Source: Polyangium aurulentum (GTDB taxonomy: Bacteria; Myxococcota_A; Polyangia; Polyangiales; Polyangiaceae). From it: a DNA stretch of 64,000 bases. The notes under the pieces were generated by a model. The model saw nothing but the letters and a program-made list of their open reading frames with translations, was not told the DNA's origin and did not search any database. Position 1 is the first letter of the stretch. The number at the start of each line of letters is the position of its first letter. This document shows positions 1,096 to 29,147 of this stretch, in pieces. The stretch is taken from assembly GCA_945875545.1 (NCBI GenBank), contig CAMCKZ010000002.1, positions 20,526 to 84,525 of the forward strand, given 5' to 3'. The position numbers were made by a program, and so were the translations under genes.

Positions 1096-1100
1096 TCTAC

Positions 1101-2626: not shown

Positions 2627-2633
2627 GGAACTC

Positions 2634-5600
2634 TCAAACCAACGCGATGCCGAGGGTCTTGCGGAGGCCGAAGTAAGCGTCGCTGACCGAAAACAGCATC
2701 ACCTCCCGGAGCTTGTCTTGTGGCGAAGGATCGCCCGCGACGGTTGGTTCCGCGAGCACCATTCGGCGGGCTACGTCGAGGTCGCCGCAAAGCAAAAAGC
2801 CCGCGCGGCAACTCGTGAATTCGACCGCTTGCACCCATCGCTTCAAGTCAGCCACCTGCCCGCCCTCAAGAAAGCGCTGAACAACGACGCGCAGGTTTTC
2901 CTTTTCCCGGGTCTCGATCAAGCGCTCGAGATCCGCCGCCGTGGCCTTCACCGCGGCCTCAATCGAAGGGTCCACTTCCACGTCTTGGCGCACGATGCAG
3001 AGCGCGGCGAAAAACAGAACCTTGATTTCGAGGTAGGTCGGAAACAGCGTACGAATGACGTGTTCGCCGCGGTGCATGGCCATGTGCCGACCCGCCAGAA
3101 ACGCCATTTCGAGGGGAGAAGCGCCGGAGAGAACGCGCTGCCCCACGTAAGAAACGGGCGGGGCAATGCCCGCGCAAACGAAGGCATTCGGCTCGTCTTC
3201 GCGCAGGTAAACGTCCGGGGCGCGAACGCCAAGGACGTCTGCGGCCCAGCGCAACGTGGTGACCGCCGTCACGGTGCTGGTGGCGTCTTGGCGAGCCTTC
3301 GAATCCAGCGCCGGCACCTGCCGCGCACCAACGAGCTGGTTCATGCGGGCCTTCGCGGCGGCCGGCGCAATCATCTCGAAAACCTTGCCCACGAAGAGGT
3401 TGTCATCTTTGTGGAAGACGTTCCGAACCCAGTGCTCGTTGTCGAGGCGCGCTCGAATCTTGGGCAAGCCCTCGCCGCGATTCGCCTCAAAAAAGCGACG
3501 CTCGTCGTCGTCGGCTTTCTTGAGAAAAACCAGCGCAGAGCTCATGCACCACGTGCGGTCTGCATCGCCTTGACGGGCGTAAAGTTTGTACAAACTCCGA
3601 TACGGATCGACCCGCAGCGGGTCTTTCGCGAGCACCAAACAATGCTCGCCGACCGCCGAATCAATCTGCCCCGTGGCCTCATAAAGTTCCGCCAAGATTT
3701 GGCGTTCGACCGCTTCGTCGGGCTTGTACTGGGTCGCCATTTTAAAGGCTTCGATGGCCGCATTCGGCTCCACGAGGCGGTCGCGGTAAATAAGACCGAG
3801 GTTATGCCACAGCTTAAAATGCAGGTCCGCATCGGATATTGATGCAGTCTGCAGGCGCTTAACCATGCGCCGAAAAGCACGTTCAAGACTCTTCCAGTCT
3901 TTGCGCTGGGTGAGAATTTTGTTCACGCGCTCGAAGGCCTCGAGCAGCCGTGGGTTCGCGTCGAGAGCCTCTTCAAAGAGCTGCAGCGCGCGGTCTGCGT
4001 CTTGCTCTTTGTCGCGATAGAGTTGAGCGACGGTGTACACGTAACGGCTACGACGAATGGGGTCCGGCTCGGCGGCGATGATGCGTTCGACCGTTTCAAT
4101 CACGCGGCGCCAGTCTTCGAGCTGTTGGTACAGGGCCATGAGGCGGTGCAGGAGCGGGAGCTCCAACGGCCGCAACTCGCGGGCTTCGTCGAGGGCGTCG
4201 ATCGCCTTTGGGACGTTCTTTTCCTTGTCGACGAGCACGTCGGCGATGTCCAACAGGAGCCCGTAACGGGCGTCGCCGTCGAGGGTTGCATCGAGCTCCT
4301 CGCGTTTGAATGCCACAACCTGACGCCAGTCTTCGGCCTCGGTGTAGAGCTCGATGACCCCTCGAAGCGAGTCGCGATGCGATGGCTCGAGGGCGAGAGC
4401 CTTCTCGAATGCCGATATGGCCAGGCGCGCGTGGGCCTGCGAGCGGTAGATGGCGCCCATCTTCGCGTGAGCCTCGACGAGCAGTTCGACCTCGCTCGTG
4501 GGCAGCAGCGTCGTCAGTTTTTGAAGGTGCGCGAGCCCCGCATTGGGGTCGTTGAGTTTCACCGCGACGCCCGCCATTACGAGCAAAATCGCGTGGTCTT
4601 GGGCGTCGAGTTGATGCGCCGATGTGTAGGCACGCAAGGCTTTTTCGTCGGCACCGAGCTCCGCGCAGGTGCGTCCGAGTTTGACGAAAAGGCCGTGCTG
4701 TTCTTCGCGGGGACGATGACCCGCTTTGCGCGTGAGGAGGTTCAGGCACGACTGGGCCTTCGCCCAAGCCTGCGCCTGGATGAAGCCGTCCACGAGGCGC
4801 TCGGCCGCGGCCTCGGAATCGGGGTCGAGTTCGAGAGCGGTTTCGAGGGCGAACTCCGCGCCCTGCGAATCATCGAGGTACTTCGAGCGTACGTCGGCGA
4901 GGCGCACGAGACACGCGGATCGTTCGATCGGTTCCACGAGCAAGCTCTGTTCGCGATCAAAAAATCGAGCAGCCGCTGCGAAGTCTCCGTCGTCGACGGC
5001 GATGCGCGCCAGCCAGCGAAGACACTGGAGATCGTCTGGGTTTGAGTCGATCGCGCGCAGGTAAAGCTGGCGTGCTCCCGTGCGATCGCCCATGCGTTCA
5101 TCAAGAATTTGCGCGGCCTTCACGAAGGCCTCCGCGCGGCGTTTTGGTTCGACGAGGCGGTCGCCAAGACGCTGCAGCGTGTCGAGGGCTTGCACGACGT
5201 CTCCGGTCTTCTCGTAGAGCCGCGCGAGCACCTCAAGAACCTGAAGGTTGCGGTCGTCGAGTTCGGATTGGTTGCGGTATGCATCTATCGCCCGCTCGAA
5301 CTCACCCGCCTCGAAAAGTGCCTCGCCCAGTTGGCCGTAGATCGAGGCCTTGTCGCTCAGACTCGTGGCCGCACCGAGGTGCCGCTCGTAGGTGCCGACG
5401 AGCGCGTCGAAGCGCCTCATGTGCCGATAAGCGCGCGACAAGATCGCGTAGGCCCGCTGCTCACTCGGATCGAGTTCGAGCGCGGCTTCAAGCATGGTGA
5501 CAGCCCCTTCGCTGTCGAGGAACTGCTCCAACCGCAGGTCGGCACCGCGGACCAAGAGCTCGACCCTCTCCCGCGGCGAGACCGCGGCCTTGATGCGCGC

Positions 5601-8600
5601 ATCGATGACGACCGCGATCTCATCCCATCGACCAAATGTACTTGCAGTCCGCAAGTATCCGTCGAGGGCGCCGCGGTGCTCCACGAACGCCTCGAAGGCC
5701 TCGCGGTAAAGCTCGCAGGCGGTCGAAATTTCGCTCAGATCGTTCTCGAAAATTTCCGCGGCTCGGGCCAATGCGTGCGCCCCATCTGGACGGGCGCCGA
5801 GGGCTCGCCCCTTGGCCGTGAGAACCGTCGCCAACTGCCGGCGGTCGCCACGATCCGCGTGAATTCGCACGAGGGCATCGACGAGCGGGGCCATGGTGGG
5901 ATCAAGCTCGAAGGCGCGCCCGTAGTGAATGACGGCCTCGTTCGCGTCGTTTCGGACCCTCTCGAAATGGCCGCCAAGTTCGAAGAGCAACTCCGCGCGC
6001 TCCTGCGCCGAACGGACCGTTTCAAGGGCACGACGGAGCAAGGATTCGACCTCTGCGTCGTTCCCGCGCCGACGCTCGAGGGCCGCCATTTGGCGAAGCG
6101 CGCGCGCACTCGAAGGCTCTAGTTTGAGGACCTCTTCGTAGAACGGACGCGCCTGCTCGGGGCGGTCGAGAACCTCGCCCCACCACCGCGCCATGTGGAG
6201 GCAAAGCGCCAAGCGCGCCTTCGTTTCGAGGGGGCCCGCGAGCCAGTCGGCCACCGCACCAACCACATCGGGCCAGCGACCGGAATTACTGGCAATTCGC
6301 TCGACACACGCTGCTGCGGGGGCCGAGGTAGGCTCGTCGCTGAGGGCATTCAAAAATGCCTCGAAGGCTTGCTCGGGGTCGGCCAGCGGACCTTCAAAAA
6401 CATCGCCGATCTCGAGCAGGAATACCGATCGCTCCGCACCCTCGGAGGCGGTGTCGAGCTGCGACAAACGGAGTTCCACGAGGGCATCCCAGCGCTTGGC
6501 CGCGCGAAGGCATTTGGCCAATTCGGATTGGGTCTCGGGAGTGGAACTCGCCCCGTCGAGGGCGACGGCCAAGTCGGCTTCGAGGTCTGCGTCGTGAAGG
6601 TGCGTACGGGCGTGTTCCATCGCGCGGCGCAAATGCACGCCCCGGTTTTCACCCTCACACGAGGTCGCGAGCTCTCGTTCGAGGGCGACCACATCGCCAT
6701 GGCGACCCGCGCGCAGAAGCAACTCAAGGCGCGCCTCGGCGAGAGGACCCTCGGCAGATGAAAGAGCCTCTGCTCCGAGGATTTGCAGTGCTTCGTCGTC
6801 GGCCTCGAGGGAGCCCACGAGAATATGCACCGCGCGAAGTACCCACGCGGAACGCTCCTCGGCGTCGATGAGGGATTTGCTGTGCTCCACCAAACGCAAG
6901 ACCGAGTCGACCAAGTCTCGCGGATGCCCGCCCTGCTCGTCGATGGCGACGACCGCCCGCAGTGCCGAAAGATTGGCGGGGTCCATGTGCAATACACGGA
7001 ACCAAATCTCGCGCGCTTGGCTTGGCGCTTGAAGTTTCTCGGCGGCGAGGCGCGCACGCTGCGAGAGCACGTTGATGCGGGCTTCACCGTCGACGACGTC
7101 TGCGAGGCGGTCAAGAGTTCCGTCGACGGCAGGCCAATCGCCTTCGAGTTGGTAAAGGCGTGCGAGCTTGCCAAGAGCCTCGGGATCTTCGCCTTTGAGG
7201 TCGAGAACGTAGCGCCAAGTGTCGATGGCCCGACGACGATCGCCCAGGCGATCTGCAGCAATATCGGCGATGCGAGCCCGAATGCGGGCCTCTTGCGTTT
7301 CGGACGTTGCGAATTCCAATCGCGAGACGAGAACGCCGTCGAGGGCCTCCCACTGACCGCGCTGTTCGTAGATTCGTTCGAGGCCGTCGAGGGCTTCGGT
7401 GTTCTGGCGGTCGTAGGTTTGAACGAGCTCCAAGTACGCCGCCAACGCGCCGTCGGCGTTGTCCACATGCTCTTCGCGAAGCTTCGCCAAGCGAAGGAGC
7501 AGTTCCACACGGCTCGCGTCGTTGTCGGCTTGCGCGACCCGCAGTGCCACGACCTTTTCGAGCTCGTCCCAGCTCTCGAGGGAGTCGTAGATGCGATCAA
7601 GTTCTTGCAAGGGCCTCGCGGCATTTGGCTGCGCGTCGTGGGCCCGGCGGTACACGGCCTCGGCCCGCGAAATGTCGCCGAGTTCGCTCTCAATCACGTC
7701 CGCGAGGGCGAGCTCCAAACCCAAACGTTCGTCGCCATGGGAGACGCGGGCGATGCCCTCTTCGAAGGCCTGCGCCACCGATTCCCAGCCGTCTTCTACG
7801 CGTTCCGCCAGTCGCTTGGCGAGCTCAAGGGACCGCTCGTCGGCGGCGTCAAGGCGCAGAAGATACAGCGAAACGCCCAGCGCCCGAACATCGTCGCTTA
7901 GAGTGACCTCGTAGACTTTCGCGAGCCGCACGCCTTCGTCGACCCGCTCGCCGGCGTCGGTGCAGTGCCGCAACAAGCGAGCCAGGGCCGTCGCCAATCG
8001 CTCACCATCGCCCGCGTTCTCAAGCCACGGCACGAGGTATTCGCGCGCCTCGACGATGCCAACTCCGGCACCAATCGCCCGTTCGAGAAGCTCGTAAGCT
8101 TCGATGCGCGAAGGCTCAAAAGCCAGCACATCGACGGCCGCGCGGACGGCGACCGCTGCACGCCCGGGCAGCCCCAATGCCAGCGCCGCAAACCGAAGGC
8201 GAAGAGTCGTGGCCTCGTTGCCATCGTGGGCAACCTCGACGTGCCGCTCCAGCGTCGCCGCCAGTTCATCGCGCTGCCCCGTTCGCTCGTAAATTCGTTC
8301 CAAATGCGAAAGAGCTGCCGCAAGCCTTTCGTCGATCGACAGGGCCGCGCGCAGTAGGCCAATCGCCCGCCCGTCATCGCGAAGCGCTGAATCGGCGCTG
8401 GAGGCCCCTTCAAGGAGCCATGTCGCCCGCTGCTCATCGGAGCTGCCCGGCGATGCCGCGAGGCTCTCTAGGGCCTCCACAAGCTCACCATGGCCCCCTA
8501 CGAGGCCCGCCAGTCGCTGCGCCTGCTTCAAGGCCGCATCGGCGTCGTCCGCCACGACGAGAAGCTTAAGTGCCGCCGCAAAAGCTGCGGGTGCGTCGCC

Positions 8601-11600
8601 GAGGCTCTCTTCGTGAAGGCGCACGAGACGCGCAAGAATCGCCGCCTGCTCGTGGGCTTCCGAGGTTGTGCGGAGTTCGACTTCAAGCGAGCGAGCGACG
8701 CTTTCGAGACGGCCCGCTTGTTCGTCGATGCGCGCCAAGACCCTGGCTGCAGCTTGCGCGGCTGCGGGCACTTCGAGGAGCTGTTCGAGGGCAGTCAGAG
8801 CATCGCTGTAATCCGCGTCTTCGTTCAACACTTCTTCGTAAAGTGCGACGGCCCGATCTGCCTGGTTCAACCGTTCGAAGACGACGCGCGCGAGGCGGCA
8901 ATGCAGCCGCGGCCGGTAGTCTCCACGCACCGTGAGCCGCTGCTGTTCGAGAAGTTCGGCAAGATCGCTCCAGCGGTTTTCGAGCTCAAACAGGGCAGAG
9001 AGACGCCCCTGCGCGACGGCGTCGTCGCTGCGAATCGCCAGCACATCGCGGTAGGCGTCGATGGCGGCGCCCACGTCTGCCATGTGCGTTTCAAGGGTGG
9101 CCGCTACCTCAAGACCGAGGGTAATTCGTTCATCATCGGCCACGGTGAGGGAGCGTGCGCGGCAGGCGTCGAGAAGAGCCCGGTAGTCTCCAATGCGGCG
9201 AAACGAAGCTTGGGCAGCTTCAAAAAGTGGGCGGTCTGCTCCGCCCGGTGCCAACGCTTTTTCATAGGCCTGCGCCGCGCGGCGATCGTCCTTCAGATGG
9301 TCGGTTGCAAGGCGTGCCACGCGGGTCCACAGGAGGCTCGCCTCACCGGGATCGTGACCCTCAACGCCGCGTGCGCGGGTCGTCAAAAAGTCGGCCAGCT
9401 CGGCGTGACGGGCAAGGCGCGACAAGAGTGTTTCCAGCTCCCGCGCCACATCTTCGTTCGACCCATCGAGCTCAAACGACGAACGAAAACGGTCAAGCGC
9501 GCCCTCGCCATCGCCAAGTTCTTCGAGGGCAAATGCGCCGAGCCGTGCGAGCAGCAACGCACCGACACGCGCGGGCTCCCGACGGGCAAGCGCGCCCGCC
9601 GCCGCCAGATACGCGACGCCCTCGGAGGTGCGTCGCGCCAGGCGTTCTGCGTCGTCGATGGCACCCTCGGAATAGCCATAACCGAGGCGCTCAAGGGCCG
9701 TGTCGAAAGCCAGTTTCGACTGGCCGTCGGCGTCGTGAAGACGACTCAATTCCGCGAGGCGCTCGTCTTGCTCAAGGCCCGTAGTGGCGTTCGCAATCGT
9801 GCGAAGCGTGCGAAGAAGGCGACGGGCGTCTCCGGTCTCGCGAAACAACACTTCGAGGCGAGCCGAAAACCGCGCCGCCTCGGAACCCGTGCAGAATACA
9901 TCAAGAGCCACGCGAGCTTCATCGAGCCCTCCGCGTGCCGCCGCCTCGTAGGCATCGACCGCAGCGTTCGCGTCAGCAAGAGGCCCCGCCAGCAATTCGC
10001 CCAGACGAAACGAAAGGTCGGCCCGCTCCGATTCTACGGACGAACGCTCGCACCGGCGCTCCAAGATCGCGCGCAAGGCAACCCACGACTGCTCTTGCCG
10101 ATGAAGGCGCTCGATCGCATCGAAGGCATCGAAGGCATCGGCGGCGTCACTCTCTGCGTCCAACACCGCGTGCCACGTGGCCACTGCGGCATCGGTGCGC
10201 GACGCGCGACCCTCTTGAAGCCGTGCGAGGCGGCGCAAAATGGCCAGGCGCGCGCCGGGTTCAACACCGAGGTTCAGCCGAAGAGCCAAAAGGCCCTCGA
10301 GCCCATCGTCGTCGTTTTGATGAGCAAAAATGCTCTCAAGACGTTCAACGGCCTTGGGCTCGTGGGTGTCTTTGACCTCCGCGAGGAGCACCGCCACGGC
10401 GGCAGCCAGGCGGCCCGCACGTTCTTCAAATTCTGCGAGGGCGAGGCGGTACGTCGTGACGATGGCACTCCCCGCGGCGAGCGACGCCAAGATGGAACCA
10501 AAGGCCTGCGCCGAGCGCTCAATGGCCGTTGCCCCAACGAACCCCGCGACAACCGCCAGCAGCTCGTCGTCGGCGGGATCAATGCAGAGTGCATGAATAC
10601 GTGCCGCATGCTCTTCGTCTGCCGAAGTCCCTTGCGTTCGGGCGAGGTCGGCGACGCTTAGCCAATGCGCCTTGCGGTCCCCGGCGGGGCGATCATCGGC
10701 CGCGAGTGACCGATGAAGGAGAGACAGCGCTGCGAGGTCGCCGGCCGCTGTGAGAAGTTTGATGAGCAAGCTTGCCGCCGCGTCTCGCACCTCGGCGCGC
10801 AGGACAAGGGCCTCAAGAAGGGCCCGCGCGTCGACGTGGGTCGCGTGCGAATCCAGGACGATTTCCAAGCCTGCGATGGCACCGGGCGCATCATTTGCGG
10901 CACCGGCCAAGAGTCGCGCGAGCGAAACACGTGAAGCAACGCGCGTTTCGGTCGTCTGAGCTTCGTGGACCTGCCGTTCGAGGAGCTGGCGCAGTTTTTG
11001 CGTTTCGCCGGCGCGGGCCAGGAGATCCGCGAGGGGTTCGGCCAACGCACCGTGCAGCCCATGCTCTTCGATGGCGGCCTCGAGAACCCGGGCGGCGCCC
11101 GCGGCATCTTGGAAACCTGTATCATGCACGCGAGCCAAACGGAGCTGCAGCTCGCGACGCTGCCCGCCATCGGTGGCGCGATCGAGGGCCGTTTCGAGAA
11201 CGGTCTTCAGTCGCTCAAATTGCCCCGCCGATTCGTAAATGCCGGAAAGCAGGACCACCGCGCGCGCGAACAGCGGGCTCTCGGGGCCGTACGCCTCGAG
11301 CACCGGTGCCACGCGGGCCGGATCTTGATGAGCCCTCCAGGATGTGGCTGCCCACGCGAGACCAAATTCTCCGGGCACTTCTTCAAGCGCGCGCCGGGCC
11401 TCAAGTACCGCGAGCAAACGCTCCGCCGCACCTTGAGAGAAAGCAGCCTCCAACACGAGTTCGAGGGGCGCGTCTCCGACGGGGACACACGCAAGCGCGT
11501 CGAGGCGGGCCTCAAGAGCGGCGGGCCCGTTGCCTTCGCGCTCCTGCAAATTTCCTATGCGTAGCGCGAGATGGCCACGAGCCTCACCCCGCGCGGCCTC

Positions 11601-14253: not shown

Positions 14254-14339
14254 GGTATGGATGGAAGGCTGGAAGGCTTTTTGAAAAGGCTGTTTGCTGC
14301 AAAAAAAACCGTCAGGTGCGGGCGTCGAGGAACGAGCGA

Positions 14340-16538: not shown

Positions 16539-16576
16539 GGACCATGAGCCTTTCGGTCAGTTTCTTTGCGGGCAAA

Positions 16577-16834
16577 TCAGAGATTTTCGACGGACTTGAG
16601 CATCTCGGGCACGAACGACGTGCGCGGACGAATAAGCATGGTCCGTACGGGCCCGGGACGAACGCGAATCGTTGCGTCGTTGGGGCCGAATCCGCCCGCA
16701 GAAAGTGGATCGTCGTTGAATTCGTAACCATAGCCATCGTTCGTATCGGAACGCTTGGTCTGCGCAGACGCGATCGACGCCCACGAAAGCGCGGCAAACG
16801 CAAGAACAAAAAACATCGGGCGCCGATTACGCAT
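16577..16834 (-). CDS. Small exported protein of the Glt/Nfs-like cluster (GltF position)
   Basis: 85 residues, starting MRNRRPMFF with a signal peptide that should be cut after ASA (residue ~24). The mature 60-residue part is hydrophilic with YGYEFNDDPL, then a Gly/Pro turn, and ends in LIRPRTSFVPEMLKSVENL. GGAG lies 6 bases before the ATG, which decides the start over a TTG 12 bases earlier. It sits 38 bases before the FHA/TonB-like gene, the place of the small periplasmic gltF in M. xanthus. I do not recognise a fold; the name by position is inference. Confidence 0.72.
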   Translation of the reverse strand: MRNRRPMFFVLAFAALSWASIASAQTKRSDTNDGYGYEFNDDPLSAGGFGPNDATIRVRPGPVRTMLIRPRTSFVPEMLKSVENL

Positions 16835-16915
16835 AGAAGACTCCAAATTTCGGTGGCTTGATTACAGTAGGAACGTATTGGGATGTGGGGCCGTCGTCAA
16901 CGACCACCTCGGCGA

Positions 16916-21400: not shown

Positions 21401-22269
21401 GCATAGCCGAAAACCTTATTGCCCTGCTCCGGCTTGTACTCGATGACCTTCTTGTAAGCCTGCTCGGCCAAGCTCCATTTCGATGGGTCTCCAACGGCTT
21501 CGTTGAAGAAGAGTTCACCGAATGCCAAGTAAGCGTTGGGCGCGTATTTGCTGCCTGGGCGCGACTTGACGAGTTCCAAATAGATCTGCCGCGCGAGGTC
21601 GTTTTCGTTCCCCTGCTCGTGCTCGTACGCAAGGTAATAAAGCACCTCGTCGAGCTGCGGATAGTTCGCGTATTCCGTTTTAAGAGTCCCGTAATACTGT
21701 ATGGCTTTTTTGCGCGCGATCTCGAGTACGCGCTTCGTGCCATCGACCTCGGCCTGCTTTTTTGACGCCTTCGCGCCGTCGCCGGCCTTCTTTGCGTCAT
21801 CGCGGTCAACTTCGGCCTGGGTCTTTTCGCGAAAAGCGGCGGACTCAAGTTCAACGTACGATTCTGCAAGACGGCGCATGATCTGCGGACGGTCAGCGGC
21901 GTTCGATGGGGTTCGGCTGTACAGGCTTTCGATGCCAGCGATTTCGGTGGTCAGCATCGCGCGCGCGCGGGCCTTCAGTCGCGACGTTCTCTCGTCGCGT
22001 TGACCGGCGGTCATCTGCTCAGAGGGCGTGCCCACAGGCGGCCCCGAGTCGATGCGCTTCTTGCTCTCGACCGGCGGTGGGGCCGAGTGAAAGGCCATTT
22101 TTGGCTGCTTACCAGCGGCCGCCTGCGTGAAGCTCGAGGCATCTCCGCTCGGGCAAGAGGTGAGCTTTTCGCGGGCCGCGGGCATGATGCAAATATCGGC
22201 GGCTTGGGCAGCGCCGCCAACCGTGAGAGCGAAAGCGAGTCTTGAAAAAGTGCTCGAACGAAGGGTCAT
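18418..22269 (-). CDS. Large periplasmic TPR protein (1283 aa), GltD/AgmU/NfsD-like
   Basis: A signal peptide (MTLRSSTF, hydrophobic core, cut at AQA|AD near residue 23) sends this protein to the periplasm. The rest is a long helical TPR-like solenoid with Y-rich repeats (EVLYYLAYEHEQGNENDLARQIY; SLAEQAYKKVIEYKPEQGNKVFGYAWYKLAYVHWN; LYFQQNWQECGPAFDRVVDEDPKTPEAAEAA) and a Lys-rich stretch around residue 600. The size and place match GltD/AgmU of M. xanthus. It begins 2 bases after the stop of the GltC-like gene, and its stop overlaps the GltE-like start. An in-frame ATG five codons earlier would overlap the previous gene; the chosen start puts the signal peptide at the very N-terminus. Confidence 0.85.
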   Translation of the reverse strand: MTLRSSTFSRLAFALTVGGAAQAADICIMPAAREKLTSCPSGDASSFTQAAAGKQPKMAFHSAPPPVESKKRIDSGPPVGTPSEQMTAGQRDERTSRLKARARAMLTTEIAGIESLYSRTPSNAADRPQIMRRLAESYVELESAAFREKTQAEVDRDDAKKAGDGAKASKKQAEVDGTKRVLEIARKKAIQYYGTLKTEYANYPQLDEVLYYLAYEHEQGNENDLARQIYLELVKSRPGSKYAPNAYLAFGELFFNEAVGDPSKWSLAEQAYKKVIEYKPEQGNKVFGYAWYKLAYVHWNNLDYPKALNAFKKTIDYGVAFAQMPNASKLAESARRDIVPLYAVSGKPEAAFAFFRGVSGDEAGKNDRSLRMLGDLGQNYIDTGHYKEAQVLYKELLKLDGASNLVCAYQTHITEAVMAANPANKPLIVSELDVQLKAQEAFAAGTHDAKAKLECANHTAELVTESAMAWHLEAVGSDGQRGTGDTKTMGLAAQLYARSIAAFKPEDFAKFEFPKLVREDWPTIYKLKYNVADLLYFQQNWQECGPAFDRVVDEDPKTPEAAEAAFAAVLCYQKTYALTHEKGSDRKGSGNLPGQAKVKEEKGKKAKTEVDPSTKYASKGFNEGQQSMVKAFDRYVCYVQPKKENTAAISQVVEVKFARARTYFETQHWEEAALAFRDVAMNYPESDAGIFAAQLYLESVNVVGEHSNPVRPSCFDEMATDVPKFIELYCGADKYTKNQEQCDILTRIQCDIRRLKAEQLSKLAATKPDGSPERLRMFEDSARTYLDLWKTYGEPALSQGKVSQCEKIEEIVYNAAESFQAAKLVANSIQVRKILMDARYGLAGTEIAKESIRKLGGNYQAIAVYDAAADFYEKYASQKGKESEKALSDAVLLRLGLGDDEKAVADAKEFQSRFGSTKPAQAAAIAFALGARYADREEWDRAKSTLSGSMTQIDKGPIDVRVQAHATLARVFRKLTKPKMVERTIIKIVGRKEKRSVEMVPVEVVDASARKEYALVRELWGHGSEGMAKIDDSYKDEPEGSRRKRLAKALTSVGEAYFYAAEEEKQALVDGLKFPEYKGPGKKDDVLKHINTKVVEWHKKKAEAIGKVAAEYKKIIDLQPEPPPRWVIAAGSRVGLMWGDFVDDFRRAPYPKEWDQKGCAAACGTVEEVSWDEVRARYFDSLDGASEPFKANNAKPALKTCLDYSVKFQYFDDYSRACEVWLSDKYKSEYHVIDELRGTPNRVGRGLDEKMPPVLVGGTLSLAGSSTNASKANKNEPESAQDE
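18933..18943 (-). repeat. Dispersed motif TGCAGAATACA
   Basis: Exact copy on the minus strand, inside the GltD-like gene, read there as A-A-E-Y-K. Confidence 0.7.
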
Positions 22270-22271
22270 GA

Positions 22272-24008
22272 TCAGCGTCCGCATTTGGAGGTAATGGTCT
22301 GGCGGTAGAAGCCCAATTCGTCTCGCCAGAACTCGCCCTGGAATGGCCACACGACGTGTTCCGCATCGGCAACAACGATGTTTCTCTGGGACTCGGTCTC
22401 GCTCACCTGTGCGTCGACCAAGGCCTGCTCAAGCTGGTTTCGCTGCGCGGCCAAGACGTCGATAACGATTTTGTCGGTGTTGCGAAGTTGCTCGCCGATT
22501 TCGTCGAGGTTGCGGCGAAAGCGCTCACGCGCAAGCTTGCCAACGCCTTGCACCGCAAGGGTGCGGGCGAGTTCCACGTTGTCTTTGATGTCGCTCCCGA
22601 GTCCGCTCTTTCGCAGTTCGGCGGGCATTTCCGCGAGGCGAGCGGTCTCGTCGTCGAGCATCTTGACGTAGTCGAGGAAGCGCAAAATCTGACGGTCGCC
22701 GAGGGCCAGCTCCACGACGGGCCGCACATGCGGGGCCAGGGCCGTCGAGCCCGCGCGCACTTGCACAAGAAACTTCTCGAGCGGTTCGTCGGTGCCGTCT
22801 GGGTACGTGGCGACGAGCGTGGTGAGCTCGTCGGAGATGGGTTTGTACTTCGCTTGAATCTTCGCGGCGACGGTCTGCGCGTCTTCGAATTGGCAGTTCG
22901 AGAAGTAGATAACGGCCTTGAGAACCTGACCCTCGGGGAAGTACGATTTCGGGAAGTACGGTGCCTCAATGGTGTGCACATTACCAAGCGCATGCGAATA
23001 ATCGCCCGCCATGTAATACGCCCACGACTCTTCAAAAAGAGCCTCAAGCCAGTACTCGCTGTCGTCGTCGACGAGGTTCCAATATTTTACCGCGGCCGAT
23101 AGCTTTGAGGAGTCAACGGTGGGCGCGTTGGTCACGTCGTCGACGCGAACCGATGCGGAATAATACGTGCGCGCCATCGACAAATACGCGAGGTCTTTGA
23201 GGCGCGATCCATCGTCGCCGCCCTGGCCTTCTTCAACCGCACCGACGATGCGTTGAAACGCTTGGACCGCGGGCACGCTCTTGCGCTGCTGTACGAAGGA
23301 AACGCCGCTAAAAAACTGCGCTTGAACGTAATATTTCGAGCGACGATCGACCTTTCCAAAAAGGAGCAGCGCTTCGTCCCACAGGCGATTGCGGTATTTG
23401 TACCGCCCCATCAGGTAGCTCAGCTCCCAGTACAGGTCTTGTTGCTCGGGGTTGTTAAACCGCTCAATGGCGGCGTCGTCGTACTTGCCAACGCGCTCCA
23501 CAATATCGGCCGGCTCGGGCAAATCGGTGGCCAGTTTGGCAAGCCAAAGAAGTGTTTCTTGGTACTTCGGGTGCGACCTATTTTCAGCAATTTCGCTGAA
23601 GATTGCGTACGAGTGCTGATAGAGCTTGACGTAGTAAAGTGCCTTCGCGAGGTTGAAGCGCGCCTCGTCTCGGTTCTCTTGCGTGTCGCCGGCTTCGCCC
23701 TTGGAAACGCGGTCAAGAAGAACCGCCGCATCGGCGTACTTTCCGTCGTTGAAGAGGCGTTTTCCCTGGGCACCAAGCTCCGTCAGTTGCCCCGCCTCGA
23801 CGGCTACAACCGCCTCTTGGCGCTTCTTTCTCTTCTTCTTGCCAGTGGCCTCGGGTGCCGCGTCGGCAGCCGGCGCGCTTGCCACGGGCTCTTTTGAAGC
23901 GGACGAATCGCCCCCGCCGCGGCGTGACTTTCGCTGCGCAAAGGCATCGGATTGGACGGCCAAGAGAGAAGCCGCGACAAGAAATAGGCGGGCTATAGGC
24001 GTTCGCAT
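22272..24008 (-). CDS. Periplasmic TPR protein, GltC/NfsC-like
   Basis: 578 residues beginning MRTPIARLFLVAAS with a signal peptide cut near AFAQ (residue ~25), then an Arg/Lys/Ala-rich linker and a basic KKKRKKRQ patch. TPR-like helices follow (AQGKRLFNDGKYADAAVLLDRV; QDLYWELSYLMGRYKYRNRLWDEALLLFGKV; YWLEALFEESWAYYMAGDYSHALG). The C-terminus has a coiled-coil stretch (~470-540) and ends WPFQGEFWRDELGFYRQ and a terminal cysteine region, which I associate with GltC/NfsC proteins. AGGAA lies 5-8 bases before the ATG; a TTG six codons earlier is less likely. First gene of the minus-strand cluster, with a 274-base divergent region ahead of it. Confidence 0.83.
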   Translation of the reverse strand: MRTPIARLFLVAASLLAVQSDAFAQRKSRRGGGDSSASKEPVASAPAADAAPEATGKKKRKKRQEAVVAVEAGQLTELGAQGKRLFNDGKYADAAVLLDRVSKGEAGDTQENRDEARFNLAKALYYVKLYQHSYAIFSEIAENRSHPKYQETLLWLAKLATDLPEPADIVERVGKYDDAAIERFNNPEQQDLYWELSYLMGRYKYRNRLWDEALLLFGKVDRRSKYYVQAQFFSGVSFVQQRKSVPAVQAFQRIVGAVEEGQGGDDGSRLKDLAYLSMARTYYSASVRVDDVTNAPTVDSSKLSAAVKYWNLVDDDSEYWLEALFEESWAYYMAGDYSHALGNVHTIEAPYFPKSYFPEGQVLKAVIYFSNCQFEDAQTVAAKIQAKYKPISDELTTLVATYPDGTDEPLEKFLVQVRAGSTALAPHVRPVVELALGDRQILRFLDYVKMLDDETARLAEMPAELRKSGLGSDIKDNVELARTLAVQGVGKLARERFRRNLDEIGEQLRNTDKIVIDVLAAQRNQLEQALVDAQVSETESQRNIVVADAEHVVWPFQGEFWRDELGFYRQTITSKCGR

Positions 24009-24282
24009 GAGGTTCCTAGGCGACAACAGTCAAGACGGAAGCGCGGCGGTCGAACGGGACGGCCGCTGCCAACGTCGGTCGTGGGAATGCTAGGAATCTT
24101 GGCGCGAAACTGTCAAGCGTCGCTGTGAGTCTCGAAAGATGTTCGAGTGAGGGCGGATACTTGCCGTGTGATGCGACCATTGCCCGTCGGGCCGCGAAAC
24201 GCTTGACGAGGCCTGAATCACCTCACTACGGTGCCCGGTGCGGGTGGCTCTTTTGGGCCCTTCCGAACCCGCGTTCTGCACG
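24009..24282. promoter_or_regulatory. Divergent intergenic region between the GltC-like gene and the lipoprotein gene
   Basis: 274 bases with no gene. It must carry the promoter(s) for the minus-strand cluster and for the plus-strand lipoprotein/YraN/FtsY/barrel genes. No confident -35/-10 or -24/-12 (GG-N10-GC) pair was found by eye. Confidence 0.4.
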
Positions 24283-24855
24283 ATGATTCGCAAGTTCGTC
24301 GCTCTATCCGGCACGGCCGTCCTCCTTGGTTCCCTTTCTGCCCTTGGCTGCACAGCCTCGGGGGTAGGAGATCCCTGTACCCCTGAGTCCGAGTATAAGC
24401 CCGATTTTCCAGGGTTTAGTCAAAAGGAGGTCAACGTCGAGTCTGGGAGTTTCCAGTGCCAGACGCGCGTTTGCCTCGTGAACCACTTTCAAGGGCGCAC
24501 CACGTGTCCTTATGGTAATACCGACAAGGCTTGCAAAATTCCTGGCACCGCCGAGGGTTCGGCGCCTGTGAGTGTTCCCGTTGCGCCGTCGTGCGTCAAC
24601 CGCAACGCCGCGAAGTCCGTCTACTGTTCGTGCCGCTGCGCCGATGTGGCGGGCCGCACCGACGACGGCGCGAATTACTGCAAGTGCGGCGACGGCTTCA
24701 CCTGCACGCAGCTCGTGACGGCGATCGAAACCGCGGAGCGCGGCCTCACGGGGGCGTACTGCATCAAAGCAGGCACCACGTACTCCGACACCGACGATAG
24801 CTGCCTGAAGTGCGATTCCACCAAGAACGACTGCGGTTCGGTAACCGGCAGGTGA
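24283..24855 (+). CDS. Cysteine-rich lipoprotein
   Basis: 190 residues starting MIRKFVALSG with a lipobox LSALGC (cysteine at residue ~23). The mature part has about 18 cysteines, many in pairs (CSCRCADV, CKCGDGFTC, CLKCDSTKNDC), suggesting a disulfide-rich surface protein. I recognise no family beyond the general type of Cys-rich myxobacterial lipoproteins. In M. xanthus an outer-membrane lipoprotein (GltK) is encoded next to gltB and gltA; this gene is separated from the barrels here by yraN and ftsY, so that match is only a suggestion. The start at the ATG just before the signal is favoured over an upstream GTG frame. Confidence 0.75.
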   Translation: MIRKFVALSGTAVLLGSLSALGCTASGVGDPCTPESEYKPDFPGFSQKEVNVESGSFQCQTRVCLVNHFQGRTTCPYGNTDKACKIPGTAEGSAPVSVPVAPSCVNRNAAKSVYCSCRCADVAGRTDDGANYCKCGDGFTCTQLVTAIETAERGLTGAYCIKAGTTYSDTDDSCLKCDSTKNDCGSVTGR

Positions 24856-25046
24856 CGGTCTGTGCCGTCGCCGCACGCTCTGACAGCGGCTTGAGCGGTG
24901 CCCTCAGCAACAGCGGGCGCCCCGAAATCCTCAGGGACGCATCGACCAGGACGCGCACCACGCTGGCGCGCGATGGAGTGGGGTCTCGGCGGGCTGCAGA
25001 CCGTATTCGTTGCTCCGCGTGCCCAAACCCTGGGGGAGGCGGCGTT

Positions 25047-25505
25047 TTGCAGCGCATTTCCAGCCCGAAGCCCGCCGCCCGCGGGTCACTCGGCAGTCTG
25101 TCGGCGACCGTGGGCCGCATCGGCGAAATTGTGGCCCGCGATTTTCTCTGGGCGAACGATCACCGCGTTGTCGCGACGAATGCGCGTGTCGGTCACGACG
25201 AGCTCGACATCATTTCGCTGGATCCACGTGGCACCCTGGTTTTTACCGAGGTTCGCAGTTACCGCAAACGCTCTCCCAATCACGCCACGGGCCTCGCCAC
25301 CCTGCGCGGTGCCAAGCTTGAACGGTGGGGCCGCGCTGCCCGAGCCTGGCATCGTATGCATGCAGAATACACGGGTCACGCGTGCCGCTTCGACGCCATC
25401 GCGGTCGACCTCGCGGGGCCTGCCCGGGTCAGTCATGTCCGCGGCGTTTTTCTAGCGTTTCGTGGAATGCAAGACCTTTCGAACCTTTTGGACGCTTACC
25501 GATGA
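25047..25505 (+). CDS. YraN/UPF0102-family nuclease-like protein, TTG start
   Basis: About 152 residues. The conserved block is GRIGEIVARDFL, then HDELDIISLDPRGTLVFTEVRS, matching the UPF0102 pattern GEiDli...fvEVK (an endonuclease-like fold). The family's catalytic E-L-D and E-V core is present, with R in place of the usual K. The start is a TTG preceded by GGGGGAGG at a 7-base spacing; the frame is open further upstream but runs into the lipoprotein gene and gives a long unrelated leader. Its stop overlaps the ftsY start (ATGA). Confidence 0.75.
   Translation: MQRISSPKPAARGSLGSLSATVGRIGEIVARDFLWANDHRVVATNARVGHDELDIISLDPRGTLVFTEVRSYRKRSPNHATGLATLRGAKLERWGRAARAWHRMHAEYTGHACRFDAIAVDLAGPARVSHVRGVFLAFRGMQDLSNLLDAYR
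25361..25371 (+). repeat. Dispersed motif TGCAGAATACA
   Basis: Exact copy inside the YraN-like gene, read as H-A-E-Y-T. Confidence 0.7.
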
Positions 25506-26896
25506 CGCCCGCAGTTATCGCCGTCGTTTTGGCGCTCGTCCTCATCATTGGCGGATTCATTATCGCCAACCAGCGCGGCCAGCTCGCCGCTGGGCCACGC
25601 TCCCGCGGGGACGGTCCCAAGCCGCCACCCCCGGTTCAAGCCCCTGCGACTTTGCTCGCCTCCGACGGCGCTGGCGTGCCTGGCGTGCCTGGCCTACCTG
25701 GCCTACCCGGCACGGCTGGCACGCCTGGGCGAGGGTCCGAGGGCACGCCGCCCGCCTTGGACCTCCTCAATCCCGTCATTCCAGCCGCAGGCCGACTCCC
25801 GGCCGACGCCCACGCCGCCCACCCGCCAGTGCCAACGGCAAGGGCCGCCGGTACGCCCGCCGCGCCCGTTGGAGACGACCTGGGGTCGCTCCCATCGATT
25901 GCCATTCAGATGGCCGCATCCACGGCGCGCCTCAGTATTCCCGCTGGTTCGGCCAGAGAGGTTGAGGGCTTGCGCCGCCGACTGGCTGCCCCCCGCGGCG
26001 GGTTCATGGCCCGACTTGCAGCCCTGTTTCGAGGCAAGGCCGACATCGATCCGAGCGTGTGGGAACGCATGGAAGACGTCCTGTTGTCAAGCGATGTTGG
26101 CATCGCGACTACGAATCGCCTGATCCAGTCGACGCGGCTCGCCGTCGAAGCGGAGCGCGTAACAGACGCCGCATCGGTTTGGCGTATTCTCAAGACCGAG
26201 GCCCATGCCATTTTGGCCATCGAGCCGAAACGGGCGCTCGTCGAAGACGGGAAAACCAATTGTTTCCTGCTCGTCGGCGTCAACGGTGCGGGAAAAACCA
26301 CCACAATCGGCAAACTTGCCACCCGGTGGAAAACCGACGGTCGCACGGTCATCCTCGGCGCGGCGGACACGTTTCGCGCCGCCGCCGTGGCTCAGCTTGA
26401 AGCCTGGGGACGCCGCATCGGGGTCACGGTTGTCAAGGGAAAAGACGGCGCCGATCCCGCCAGCGTTGCCTTTGAGGCAACAAAAAAAGGGGTTGACGAC
26501 GGGGCGCAGGTTGTGCTGGTCGACACCGCGGGCAGACTCCAGACGAAGCAGCCGCTGATGGACGAGCTTCGCAAAATTCACAAGTCCATGGGCAAGGCCC
26601 TTGAGGGCGCGCCGCACGAAACGCTGCTGGTCCTCGATGCCACCACGGGGCAAAACGCTTTGCAGCAGGCGCTACTTTTTCGTGAGGCGGCGCCTCTTAC
26701 GGGCATCGTTCTTACGAAGCTCGACGGCACCGCCAAAGGCGGCATTATTCTGGCGATCTGCGCGGAGCTCCAGCTTCCTGTGCGGTTTGTGGGCCTCGGC
26801 GAGCGCGCCGACGACCTTCGCACGTTTCACGCAAACGACTTCGTCGAGGCGCTCTTTGGCGACGATCCTTCATCGGCACCGGAGATCTCCGCATGA
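25502..26896 (+). CDS. ftsY: FtsY, signal recognition particle receptor GTPase
   Basis: 464 residues. The first ~20 residues are a membrane helix (PAVIAVVLALVLIIGGFII). A Pro/Gly/Ala-rich linker follows with a collagen-like run at ~59-76 (GVPGVPGLPGLPGTAGTPG). The NG GTPase domain starts near residue 160: helical N domain, G1 GVNGAGKTTT, then DTFRAAA, G3 DTAGR, G4 TKLDG and a closing GLGERADDL. Role: docking of SRP-ribosome complexes at the SecYEG channel. A transmembrane anchor instead of the E. coli acidic A domain is common outside gammaproteobacteria. Overlaps yraN at its start and the first ATG of the beta-barrel frame at its end. Confidence 0.95.
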   Translation: MTPAVIAVVLALVLIIGGFIIANQRGQLAAGPRSRGDGPKPPPPVQAPATLLASDGAGVPGVPGLPGLPGTAGTPGRGSEGTPPALDLLNPVIPAAGRLPADAHAAHPPVPTARAAGTPAAPVGDDLGSLPSIAIQMAASTARLSIPAGSAREVEGLRRRLAAPRGGFMARLAALFRGKADIDPSVWERMEDVLLSSDVGIATTNRLIQSTRLAVEAERVTDAASVWRILKTEAHAILAIEPKRALVEDGKTNCFLLVGVNGAGKTTTIGKLATRWKTDGRTVILGAADTFRAAAVAQLEAWGRRIGVTVVKGKDGADPASVAFEATKKGVDDGAQVVLVDTAGRLQTKQPLMDELRKIHKSMGKALEGAPHETLLVLDATTGQNALQQALLFREAAPLTGIVLTKLDGTAKGGIILAICAELQLPVRFVGLGERADDLRTFHANDFVEALFGDDPSSAPEISA

Positions 26897-26997
26897 CGAC
26901 CGAGTCAAGCATTCATGGGGCCCACCAGACGCCCGGGCCAATTGGCGCGGAAACGGAACAATTTCACCGTGCGCGAACGACAGAGGAGTGCTCGACG

Positions 26998-28149
26998 ATG
27001 GTTGAGAATTTCGAGCAACCCATGGTAGGTCGGTCTGTGTTTGGAGAGACGAGCCCGCTGGCCCGCTTCTTCCGCGCCCTCGACGACCGCCGTCCGATGA
27101 AGCTCCCCGCACTCCGCCGCACCGCGTGCCTAGCCGCCGCATCCATGCTCTCTGTGTTGCCTTCTACTGCGGGCATGGTGGGTACATTTGCCGCCGTGGC
27201 TACGTTGGGCGCGTCGAACGCGTTTGCGCAAAAGGCTCCGAAAGGTGCTAAGGGGGGTAAGCCTGCGAAGGCCCCGGTCGCGGCACCCGCTGCCGCTCGC
27301 GCTGCCGCGCCGGCCCCAAGCCCACAACCGAGCGCGGGCATCGACGAACTCGACGAACCACGCGCCGCGGCGAAGCCCGATCCTGCGGCCAGTGGCATGG
27401 GCTCGGGCATGGGCGGCATTTGCGAAATAGACCCGGCTGCCTGCCCCAAGGCCGAAGACCTCGAGACCGCGGCTGCGCGCAAGGTCCGCGAAGAGCTTTT
27501 CGCGATGCAACAGGTGTTCGTCGTTCGTTCCGGTCGTTTCGAGCTCAATCCGTTTTGGGCGTTCACCCTGAACGACCAGTATGTGAGCCACCCGTCCGCG
27601 GGTTTGGCCATGAACTACTACCTCACACAGGATCTCGCCATCGGCGTGCGCGGGCAGTCCTATTGGGGCCTGAACATCGACTCGGCTTTTAACTTCGAGA
27701 ACCGCCGCGCCACACGCGTCGCCGTCCCGTTGAACGAGGCCCTTTGGGGGGCATCGCTGAATGCCACCTACGTGCCGATTTACGGTAAATTCGCTGGCTT
27801 TCAGAAGTTCATCTTCTCCTACGACGTGTACGCCACGGCGGGGGCCAGCGTCATTTCCACGCGGCCCATACCGGTCGTCGACCCGAACAACCGAAACTTC
27901 GATTACGGCGTCCGAATTGGCGCGAACGTCGGCGTGGGTTTGCGAATTTTCTTCAGCCGCTGGTTCGCCGCGACGCTTGAAATCCGCGATACCATCTACC
28001 CTGAGCTACTTGAGAACTTGAAGGTCGACGCCAATCCGATCGACAAGGCCACGTGGAACGGCGAGACGCGCATCACCAACAACGTGGAGGCCGGCCTTGG
28101 TTTCACGATGTTCTTCCCCACCACCTTCGAATACCGGCTTCCAAAGTGA
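26998..28149 (+). CDS. Outer-membrane beta-barrel protein, GltB/GltA-type (OMP_myx family)
   Basis: 383 residues from an ATG with GAGGAG 9 bases upstream. A signal peptide begins at an internal MKLPALRRT (residue 34) and should be cut after AFAQ (residue ~79), so either the leader is unusually long or translation starts at 27097. The frame also opens at 26893 with ATGA overlap to ftsY. A Lys/Ala/Pro linker and a Met/Gly stretch follow, then an RFELNPFWAFTLNDQYVSH stretch and alternating beta strands ending in phenylalanine-rich strands (GLGFTMFFPTTFEYRLPK). This matches the myxobacterial outer-membrane beta-barrel type to which GltA/GltB and NfsA/NfsB belong. The next gene is a second barrel 140 bases on. 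Confidence 0.8.
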   Translation: MVENFEQPMVGRSVFGETSPLARFFRALDDRRPMKLPALRRTACLAAASMLSVLPSTAGMVGTFAAVATLGASNAFAQKAPKGAKGGKPAKAPVAAPAAARAAAPAPSPQPSAGIDELDEPRAAAKPDPAASGMGSGMGGICEIDPAACPKAEDLETAAARKVREELFAMQQVFVVRSGRFELNPFWAFTLNDQYVSHPSAGLAMNYYLTQDLAIGVRGQSYWGLNIDSAFNFENRRATRVAVPLNEALWGASLNATYVPIYGKFAGFQKFIFSYDVYATAGASVISTRPIPVVDPNNRNFDYGVRIGANVGVGLRIFFSRWFAATLEIRDTIYPELLENLKVDANPIDKATWNGETRITNNVEAGLGFTMFFPTTFEYRLPK

Positions 28150-28211
28150 AGCCCACACGTAACGCCGCGCTTGAAGGCATGACCCCCGTTTTCGCGATGG
28201 CGCTCGCCGTC

Positions 28212-28254
28212 CCTGTCGCTCCTGTCGCTCCTGTCGCTCCCGACGCTCCTGTCG
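28212..28254 (+). repeat. 9-bp tandem repeat between the two barrel genes
   Basis: CCTGTCGCT repeated three times, then one diverged unit (CCCGACGCT) and a partial copy. It lies in the spacer just before the second barrel gene. Confidence 0.8.
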
Positions 28255-28289
28255 CGAAGGGCATCGGCCCGATGTCCGAGAGAAACCCC

Positions 28290-29147
28290 ATGCGTAAGCG
28301 TCTTTCCTCGCTAACTCTGCTGGCAACTGCCGCGGCAATGAGCATCTTCACGCTCGCCTCCACCGCCCAGGCCGAGGAGCTCAACATCACCGGCCCGCTG
28401 AAAGACGCGCCGTCGGTGCGCCGGTTGAAGCAATACCGCAATCAGCGCTTTGAGGTCGCGTTGCAGCCCACGTTCACGCTGCTCAACGAGTACCGTCACA
28501 CGTTTTTCGCGGGCTTGCGCACGCAATACCACGTGAACGACTGGTTCGGCTTCGGGCTCTTCGGTGCGTTTTCACCGATGTCCGTCACAACCGACCTCAC
28601 CGACCAGCTCGATACCTCGCTCGCGAAGGCCGATCGCCACTCCACGAAGAACGCGCCCAGCGTGGGCTACGTGGAGGGGGCGACTGCCTACCCTAAGTTT
28701 AGCGCACAGACGTCCACGCTGAGCTGGATTGCAGCGCCTCAAATGCAGTTCGTCCCGTTCCGCGGCAAGCTGTCGCTATTCGACGCCTTCTTCGTCGATG
28801 CGGACGCCTTCGTTCACGCTGGCGTCGCCTTTGTGGGCGTCAACGAACGCAAAGATTGCCAAACCTGCACCGATACCGCCTCCCTGAAGCTCGATTCGCG
28901 GGTAGCCGTGGCACCAACCTTCGGTTTGGGCATGAACTTCTACCTCGACGACAACGTTTCTGTGGGTTTTGAGTACCGTGCGCTTCCCTTTGCGTGGAAT
29001 CGCGCTGGTTTCGACTCCCGCGGCAGCGGGCCCGACGGCAACTTTCCCGACGAACGCATTAACGCAAACGACCGCACGTTTAAGTTCAACCAGATGGTCG
29101 CCCTAAGCGTCGGTTACAGCTTCGGAGACCCGATCATCACCGACTGA
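28290..29147 (+). CDS. Outer-membrane beta-barrel protein, second of pair (GltA/GltB-type)
   Basis: 285 residues starting MRKRLSSLTL with a signal peptide cut at AQA|EE (residue ~29). After EELNITGPLKDAP come strands of the same myxobacterial barrel family (RFEVALQPTFTLLNEYRHTFFAGLRTQYHVNDWFGFGLFG; GLGMNFYLDDNVSVGFEYRALPF), ending in KFNQMVALSVGYSFGDPIITD. Two cysteines (CQTC) lie in a loop. GAGAG sits 6 bases before the ATG; an ATG 18 bases upstream is also in frame. The two consecutive barrels repeat the pairing gltA-gltB / nfsA-nfsB, here on the opposite strand to the rest of the cluster. Confidence 0.82.
   Translation: MRKRLSSLTLLATAAAMSIFTLASTAQAEELNITGPLKDAPSVRRLKQYRNQRFEVALQPTFTLLNEYRHTFFAGLRTQYHVNDWFGFGLFGAFSPMSVTTDLTDQLDTSLAKADRHSTKNAPSVGYVEGATAYPKFSAQTSTLSWIAAPQMQFVPFRGKLSLFDAFFVDADAFVHAGVAFVGVNERKDCQTCTDTASLKLDSRVAVAPTFGLGMNFYLDDNVSVGFEYRALPFAWNRAGFDSRGSGPDGNFPDERINANDRTFKFNQMVALSVGYSFGDPIITD

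What the first reader, a model, noticed from the sequence alone, without database searches (positions are those of the whole stretch)
2634..29147. Complete-looking Glt/Nfs-type trans-envelope gene cluster, with barrels on the opposite strand
On the minus strand, in order, lie a periplasmic TPR protein, a 1283-residue TPR protein, a TPR lipoprotein, a small exported protein, an FHA/TM/AgmX-tail protein, a second TPR lipoprotein and a 3348-residue TPR protein; two OMP_myx-type barrels follow on the plus strand. Established knowledge: M. xanthus Glt (gliding) and Nfs (spore coat) machines consist of GltA/B barrels, GltC, GltD, GltE, GltF, GltG and the giant GltI, driven by AglRQS. The gene order C-D-E-F-G here matches. 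No motor (AglR/Q/S), GltJ or GltH-like barrel is seen in the window. That this is a Glt-like machine, and whether it serves gliding, surface secretion or another role, is inference.
Basis: partly seen in the sequence, partly recalled or inferred. Interest (0 to 1): 0.7.

Follow-up and report, generated by a model that had tools for sequence, protein, structure and literature searches.

The report
Gliding-type machine without its polarity switch
A small-genome relative of the gliding myxobacteria carries, in one locus, genes matching most of the cell-envelope machine that moves Myxococcus, with a conserved TPR lipoprotein in the slot of one outer-membrane protein, while searches of its draft genome found no copy of the MglA/MglB switch that controls that machine in Myxococcus, so here it would likely have to run without it.

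Summary
NCBIfam's GltC and GltG models cover two proteins almost end to end (E 3e-74 and 2e-84), and the order C-D-E-F-G-TPR lipoprotein, divergent from ftsY, recurs in related genomes. A GltJ-like protein, two ExbB-ExbD-ExbD (AglRQS-like) sets and a second, FHA-less cluster beside a polysaccharide-export gene lie on other contigs. No GltH (CglE model) was found. Two findings go further. (1) The TPR lipoprotein follows gltG in 77 of 134 GltG-like rows (74 loci); GltH takes that slot in 15, all of one other class. (2) Of 40 genomes tested outside that class, 38 have MglB and a close MglA; the two lacking both are this genome and its one congener at hand. So a Glt-type machine with GltI and a GltJ-like protein persists without the switch that M. 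xanthus needs. Whether it glides is open: Bdellovibrio lost mglB, and its mglA mutant still glides. New variant of a known kind.

The parts
2634..12680 (-). GltI-like giant TPR protein (3348 aa), no signal peptide seen, with a C-terminal ~210-residue zincin-like domain that lacks HEXXH
   Evidence: assigned by position, size, TPR content and lack of a signal peptide (M. xanthus GltI 4132 aa, no signal peptide, PMC3169522 Table 1)
13300..14253 (-). LipT (my label): TPR lipoprotein (317 aa, lipobox IQGC) in the slot that GltH takes in M. xanthus
   Evidence: (TPR_11 5.1e-12)
14340..16538 (-). GltG: FHA, one transmembrane helix (~403-425), Gly-rich linker, AgmX/PglI tail
   Evidence: NF033760 E 2.4e-84, residues 11-730 of 732; NF033768 over its cut-off; FHA
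16577..16834 (-). GltF-like small exported protein (85 aa)
   Evidence: no Pfam match; position, size and signal peptide; found by tblastn in 16 of 17 family loci
16916..18421 (-). GltE-like TPR lipoprotein (501 aa, lipobox LTAC)
   Evidence: (NF033758 E 2.8e-10, well below its cut-off and outscored by other TPR models); mainly position
18418..22350 (-). GltD-like periplasmic TPR protein (1283 aa from the Met before its signal peptide)
   Evidence: (generic TPR-type families only); position and size
22272..24026 (-). GltC, periplasmic TPR protein
   Evidence: NF033756 E 3.4e-74, residues 43-582 of 584; cut-off not reached
24283..24855 (+). Cys-rich lipoprotein (190 aa), divergent from gltC; positional counterpart of cglC/gltK
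   Evidence: a profile of it hits a gene divergent from and within 4 kb of gltC in 15 of 15 family and 8 of 8 order loci that hold gltC; no Pfam or NCBIfam match
24810..25505 (+). UPF0102/YraN-family gene, a neighbour and probably not part of the machine
   Evidence: PF02021 7.6e-13
25325..26896 (+). ftsY, a conserved neighbour and probably not part of the machine
   Evidence: TIGR00064 7e-97; divergent from gltC in 12 of 12 family loci where it was found
27097..28149 (+). GltA/GltB-like outer-membrane barrel 1
   Evidence: TIGR04565 89.7 bits, over its cut-off
28290..29147 (+). GltA/GltB-like outer-membrane barrel 2
   Evidence: TIGR04565 50.6 bits, below cut-off 60; OMP_b-brl, below its cut-off

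Best explanation
The window encodes a Glt-type trans-envelope gene set (GltC-D-E-F-G, a TPR lipoprotein, a giant GltI, two OMP_myx-type barrels and a Cys-rich lipoprotein) that is predicted to couple a proton-driven AglRQS-like motor, encoded on another contig, to the outer membrane. It works like the Agl-Glt machine, but I do not file it as that machine, because GltH and MglA/MglB were tested and not found. Inferred mechanism: ExbB-ExbD-ExbD stators move GltG and the GltJ-like protein. GltI would be the cytosolic scaffold, with a catalytically dead zincin-like end domain. GltD, E, F and C would carry force through the periplasm to the GltA/B barrels and the Cys-rich lipoprotein. LipT, a TPR lipoprotein in the GltH slot, would be an adaptor in that chain. 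Shown: the genes and their order, the motor and GltJ-like genes elsewhere, no GltH match, and no MglB or close MglA found here or in the one same-genus genome, although the 38 other genomes tested outside the GltH class have both. Inferred: that the machine is assembled and works without MglA-controlled polarity, either as a surface conveyor or as gliding under another control.
For: GltC and GltG nearly full-length NCBIfam matches. C-D-E-F-G-LipT colinear in 12 of 17 family loci and 7 of 9 order loci; of the 5 family misses, 3 are cut by contig ends (L146, L153, L178) and 2 are not (L144, L152). Cys-rich lipoprotein divergent from gltC in 15 of 15 family and 8 of 8 order loci with gltC. Motor: 6 MotA_ExbB and 8 ExbD hits in the genome, with two divergent ExbB-ExbD-ExbD sets on C7. 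GltJ-like protein on C48 with zinc ribbon, GYF and AgmX tail. Gene after GltG: LipT in 77 of 134 rows (74 loci), GltH/CglE in 15; no row has both. The ten GltH rows in the GltG tree form one clade. GltH model: none in G000, over cut-off in 63 of 71 genomes of another class. GltI end domain in 23 of 40 genomes and in 0 of 13 of that class. MglB in 38 of 46 genomes: missing in G000, G139 and 6 of 6 tested genomes of that class. MglA: at least 241 bits in the 38 other genomes but 133 and 137 bits (41%) in G000 and G139; that match pairs with a second GTPase of G006 (50%) rather than with G006's MglA (42%). Bdellovibrio mglA deletion cells still glide (PMC3983030, passages).
Against: Equivalog cut-offs for GltC, GltG and GltJ are not met. 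GltD, E, F and I are placed by position and size, not by a specific model; GltE scores better against generic TPR lipoprotein models. LipT is only 20-27% identical to the 12 other rows of its alignment, its profile also hits GltI, and it is 619 bases from gltI. G001 has LipT after GltG and a GltH elsewhere, and 7 of the 30 genomes that are of this class have weak CglE matches (E 9e-4 to 2e-13, under the cut-off; one of them in this family, G046), so GltH is not cleanly absent from the lineage. Six of the 15 GltH rows come from loci fetched by the CglE search itself. 34 of 134 rows have neither gene called. The genome is a 97.5%-complete draft in 188 contigs, and only one congener is at hand. 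MglB was sought with one model, MglA with one query. CglB, AglZ, MreB, RomR and pili were not tested. Motor and machine are not linked. The 2026 review PMC13104615 (passages) calls the Bdellovibrio gliding machinery unidentified, so that precedent is not firmly a Glt one.
Confidence: 0.7

Rival explanations
1. An ordinary gliding machine like that of M. xanthus, with MglA and MglB merely missing from two incomplete drafts.
For: Core Glt genes, GltJ-like and motor genes are present; both genomes are drafts (188 and about 510 contigs).
Against: Both genomes are about 97.5-98% complete, and both lack MglB and close MglA, while the 38 other genomes tested outside the GltH class have both. The GTPase that both do hold is a different paralogue.
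Confidence: 0.2
2. An Nfs-like (spore or surface coat) machine rather than a gliding one: it moves a surface polymer around the cell.
For: Glt and Nfs are paralogous complexes sharing the Agl motor (PMC3858216, passages). Cargo transport over the surface may need no MglA polarity (inference).
Against: The published Nfs set has no GltI, GltJ or GltK homologues (PMC3169522 section 13); here GltI and a GltK-positioned lipoprotein sit in the locus and a GltJ-like gene lies elsewhere. The second cluster on C73, without FHA match and near a Wza/EpsY-type exporter, is the better Nfs-like candidate.
Confidence: 0.25
3. A relic: the switch was lost because the organism no longer moves, and the cluster is on its way out.
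For: MglAB missing in this genus only among the 40 genomes tested outside the GltH class; a small genome of 3.5 Mb.
Against: The frames are intact, including a 3348-codon GltI. The congener keeps GltC, D, E, F, ftsY and both barrels (L178) and a GltI end domain 84% identical in a 3361-residue frame.
Confidence: 0.12
4. A chance assembly of unrelated TPR, FHA and OMP genes.
For: GltD, E, F and I have no specific model match.
Against: Nearly full-length GltC and GltG matches and the same order in many genomes.
Confidence: 0.01

Closest known systems
M. xanthus Agl-Glt gliding machinery (G1 gltD-J, G2 gltK-B-A-C, M1 aglRQS; Luciano et al. 2011, PMC3169522)
   Same: D-E-F-G order; GltG architecture; giant TPR GltI near gltG; two OMP barrels; lipoprotein gene divergent from the unit that holds gltC (PMC4488436); ExbB-ExbD-ExbD motor unlinked; GltJ-like protein with zinc ribbon, GYF and AgmX tail.
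   Different: G1 and G2 genes in one locus; TPR lipoprotein instead of gltH between gltG and gltI; no GltH match; gltJ-like gene unlinked; no MglB or close MglA found.
M. xanthus Nfs spore-coat machinery (PMC3858216)
   Same: Paralogous core driven by the same motor.
   Different: Nfs has no GltI, J or K homologues (PMC3169522); the window has GltI and a GltK-positioned lipoprotein.
Anaeromyxobacter glt loci (as described in PMC3169522; not examined here)
   Same: G1 and G2 homologues grouped on the chromosome.
   Different: Not compared gene by gene.
Bdellovibrio core complexes (PMC3169522, PMC3983030)
   Same: Glt-like core without GltH and without mglB; the mglA mutant still glides.
   Different: Bdellovibrio is reported to lack GltI, J and K and keeps mglA; the window organism has GltI and a GltJ-like protein and lacks a close MglA.

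Membership tests
Agl-Glt gliding machinery | GltG: FHA, TM, AgmX/PglI tail, nearly full-length model match | tested here: met
   NF033760 residues 11-730, E 2.4e-84; but 284 bits against a curated equivalog cut-off of 650
Agl-Glt gliding machinery | GltC match | tested here: met
   NF033756 E 3.4e-74 over 540 residues; 251 bits against cut-off 450
Agl-Glt gliding machinery | GltC and GltG over NCBI's equivalog cut-offs | tested here: not met
   0 of 282 phylum genomes pass the GltG cut-off, so the model is probably tuned to close M. xanthus relatives
Agl-Glt gliding machinery | GltD, GltE, GltF present in order D-E-F-G | tested here: met
   identity by position, size and signal sequence, weak model support
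Agl-Glt gliding machinery | GltI giant cytosolic TPR protein | tested here: met
   shared C-terminal domain in 23 of 40 genomes; M. xanthus GltI itself not compared
Agl-Glt gliding machinery | GltJ (zinc ribbon, AgmX tail) in the genome | tested here: met
   C48; NF033761 over the N-terminal 251 residues, 91.7 bits against cut-off 450
Agl-Glt gliding machinery | AglR-Q-S: one ExbB and two ExbD genes in a row | tested here: met
   two such sets on C7; orthology to AglRQS not tested by tree
Agl-Glt gliding machinery | GltA and GltB barrels | tested here: met
   TIGR04565 89.7 bits (over) and 50.6 bits (under the cut-off of 60)
Agl-Glt gliding machinery | GltK/CglC lipoprotein divergent from the gltBAC unit | tested here: inconclusive
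   a conserved Cys-rich lipoprotein at that position; no M. xanthus CglC sequence to compare
Agl-Glt gliding machinery | GltH between gltG and gltI | tested here: not met
   the slot holds LipT; no NF033755 (CglE) match at E<=1e-3 in G000; that CglE is GltH is by position and recall, not checked
Agl-Glt gliding machinery | MglA/MglB polarity control | tested here: not met
   draft genome
Agl-Glt gliding machinery | Drives gliding | not testable with these tools
   needs live cells
Nfs spore-coat machinery | Core without GltI, GltJ or GltK homologues | tested here: not met
   GltI-like and a GltK-positioned gene are in the locus
Nfs spore-coat machinery | Groups with NfsG, NfsD or NfsE in a tree | not tested
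   no M. xanthus sequence seen in the listings

The most novel reading that the evidence does not exclude
LipT is an ancestral core part of Glt machines in most of Myxococcota, missed because M. xanthus has GltH in its slot; and in this genus the whole machine, GltI and GltJ included, has been freed from the MglA/MglB switch and runs as an unpolarised surface conveyor.
Probability: 0.35. Interest if true: 0.72.

Novelty: new variant of a known kind. Interest (0 to 1): 0.52.

Why it matters
Force transmission through the envelope and its control by a Ras-like switch are known mainly from M. xanthus. A conserved lipoprotein in the gltG-gltI slot would add a part to that model. A natural genus that keeps GltI, GltJ-like and AglRQS-like genes but not MglA/MglB makes it testable which functions of the machine need the switch.

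Tried and rejected
Naming the organism: neither the protein searches nor the genome-contig scan (the best 80 of 428 relatives were kept, and records near the window may be left out) gave this genome's own name. So family 'f1' is probably Polyangiaceae, not proven.

M. xanthus reference sequences: the phylum search (0 of 282 genomes over the GltG cut-off), the genome scan and the GltG protein search (120 of 467 hits listed) showed no Myxococcus record in their listings. Hence no Glt-versus-Nfs tree.

Cys-rich lipoprotein: the first, pattern-based scan printed 46 loci, some plainly false; the profile scan replaced it. By profile it is found in 15 of 15 family, 8 of 8 order, 1 of 2 class and 0 of 9 phylum-level loci that hold gltC, and in 26 of 38 named loci. 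By eye, seven loci have a Cys-rich lipoprotein on the same strand as gltC (L074, L092, L109, L169, L170, L171, L175). Its structure model has mean pLDDT 63.6 and was not used.

Tree of GltG: quick method, 120 rows, 29 of 117 inner branches open, several long rows; LipT labels need 16 changes (shuffled mean 38), so the label is clustered but not one clade. The C73 copy has an end branch of 4.03, so its place is unsure.

Counts dropped or limited: one search kept rows of at least 120 bits with distinct last 150 residues; 34 rows had no call, 6 lay at a contig edge, 2 had only a GltI-size hit; three loci (L062, L090, L170) are counted twice under LipT; 6 of the 15 GltH rows come from loci selected by the CglE search, leaving 9 of 128 otherwise; some rows are partial or paralogous frames, and one organism may appear under an unnamed and a named handle. 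The LipT alignment holds 13 rows; five others that I had listed for it were left out or gave stops. Fisher p 5.9e-5 for GltI with MglB (21 of 23 against 0 of 6) ignores shared ancestry.
Full report
What was checked. The window is G000:C2:20526-84525 of a 3.52-Mb draft (188 contigs, 97.5% complete). NCBIfam identifies GltC (E 3.4e-74) and GltG (E 2.4e-84) over nearly their whole length, below the curated equivalog cut-offs. GltD, E, F and I have no specific match and are named by order, size and signal sequence against Table 1 of Luciano et al. 2011 (PMC3169522; sections 6, 11, 12 and 13 read, and passages).

Between gltC and the barrels lie a Cys-rich lipoprotein gene (24283-24855, +), a UPF0102/yraN gene and ftsY. 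A profile of the lipoprotein finds a counterpart divergent from gltC and within 4 kb of it in 15 of 15 family loci, 8 of 8 order loci, 1 of 2 class loci and 26 of 38 named loci that hold gltC, and in 0 of 9 phylum-level loci. In M. xanthus, cglC (gltK) is divergent from gltBAC (PMC4488436, passages). So a GltK counterpart is likely here, untested by sequence.

The rest of the machine. A search of the genome found five AgmX-tail loci, the window's GltG among them. One, on C48, is GltJ-like: zinc ribbon, GYF and tail. Another, on C73, belongs to a second C-D-E-F-like set whose GltG-like protein has no FHA match; a barrel-like gene and a Wza/EpsY-type polysaccharide-export gene follow. C7 carries two divergent ExbB-ExbD-ExbD sets, the make-up of aglR-Q-S.

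Synteny. Among 17 same-family loci, C-D-E-F-G-LipT is colinear in 12, and ftsY is divergent from gltC in all 12 where it was found; among 9 order-level loci, 7 are colinear and ftsY is divergent in 5 of 5. Of the 5 family misses, 3 are cut by contig ends and 2 are not. The block and its divergent ftsY are therefore old in this order.

The gltG-gltI slot. Of 134 GltG-like rows, 77 (74 loci) have LipT next downstream, 15 have GltH (CglE model), 34 have neither call, 6 sit at an edge and 2 have only a GltI-size hit; none has both. All 15 GltH rows are of one class, and 6 of them come from loci picked by the CglE search. The CglE model passes its cut-off in 63 of 71 genomes of that class. Among 30 chosen genomes 10 have a match at E<=1e-3 and 2 pass the cut-off; G000 has none, but 7 genomes of its own class have weak ones, elsewhere in the genome where checked by coordinates. 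G001 has LipT after GltG and a GltH on another contig. The ten GltH rows kept in the GltG tree form one clade. LipT is divergent but keeps its TPR frame and a near-invariant start region. I saw no description of such a lipoprotein in the held papers (searches: listings; passages of PMC13104615 and PMC12288465); most subscription papers are not held, and PMC3318471, PMC11135422 and PMC9946355 could not be read.

The missing switch. Roadblock/MglB (PF03259) is found in 38 of 46 genomes: in the 38 tested outside the GltH class other than this genus, and in none of 6 of the GltH class. G000 and G139, the only congener met, lack it. An MglA query gives at least 241 bits in those 38 genomes, but 133 and 137 bits in G000 and G139. 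The GTPase that these two hold matches a second GTPase of G006 better (50%) than G006's MglA (42%). In M. xanthus MglA acts on the gliding machine through MreB, AglZ, AglR and GltJ (PMC12288465, passages). Bdellovibrio lost mglB, and its mglA mutant still glides (PMC3983030, abstract and passages), though its gliding machinery is called unidentified in PMC13104615 (passages). So loss of the switch does not prove loss of gliding.

Conclusion. The Glt-type identity is secure (about 0.9). LipT as a working part is likely (0.65), and absence of MglAB from this genus is likely (0.75). What the machine moves is open: a surface conveyor or MglA-independent gliding. It is a new variant of a known kind.

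Noticed in passing
L020 (G000:C73) 681-14090: A second C-D-E-F-G-like cluster in the same genome, its GltG-like protein without FHA match, followed by a barrel-like gene and a Wza/EpsY-type export gene: a candidate Nfs-like, polymer-linked machine.
   Followed up: partly
L019 (G000:C7) 5012-10053: Two divergent ExbB-ExbD-ExbD motor sets back to back, with a 312-aa protein of no known family after one of them.
   Followed up: partly
L172 (G001) 1719-4353: In another class, a Cys-rich lipoprotein gene and a VWA-type protein gene (weak MIDAS-adhesin and CglD matches) sit directly beside the Glt cluster, a possible CglB-type adhesin.
   Followed up: no
window 1101-2468 (-): Sigma-54 activator (PF00158) just downstream of gltI; its N-terminus looks FHA-like by eye, but Pfam did not list FHA. 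A possible regulator.
   Followed up: no
L241 (G000:C120) 1022-1984 and 6947-8068: An orphan Ras-like GTPase shared with the congener, on a small contig that also holds a CpaF/TadA-like ATPase gene (by eye).
   Followed up: partly
L169, L170, L171, L175: In Bradymonadales-like genomes (a guess from genome sizes) a small Cys-rich lipoprotein gene lies on the same strand before gltC; L170 also has a small lipoprotein with an AgmX-like end between gltG and LipT.
   Followed up: no
class of G193 (71 genomes): A class with GltH after GltG (63 of 71 genomes over the CglE cut-off) in which no GltI end domain (0 of 13 tested) and no MglB (0 of 6 tested) was found.
   Followed up: partly
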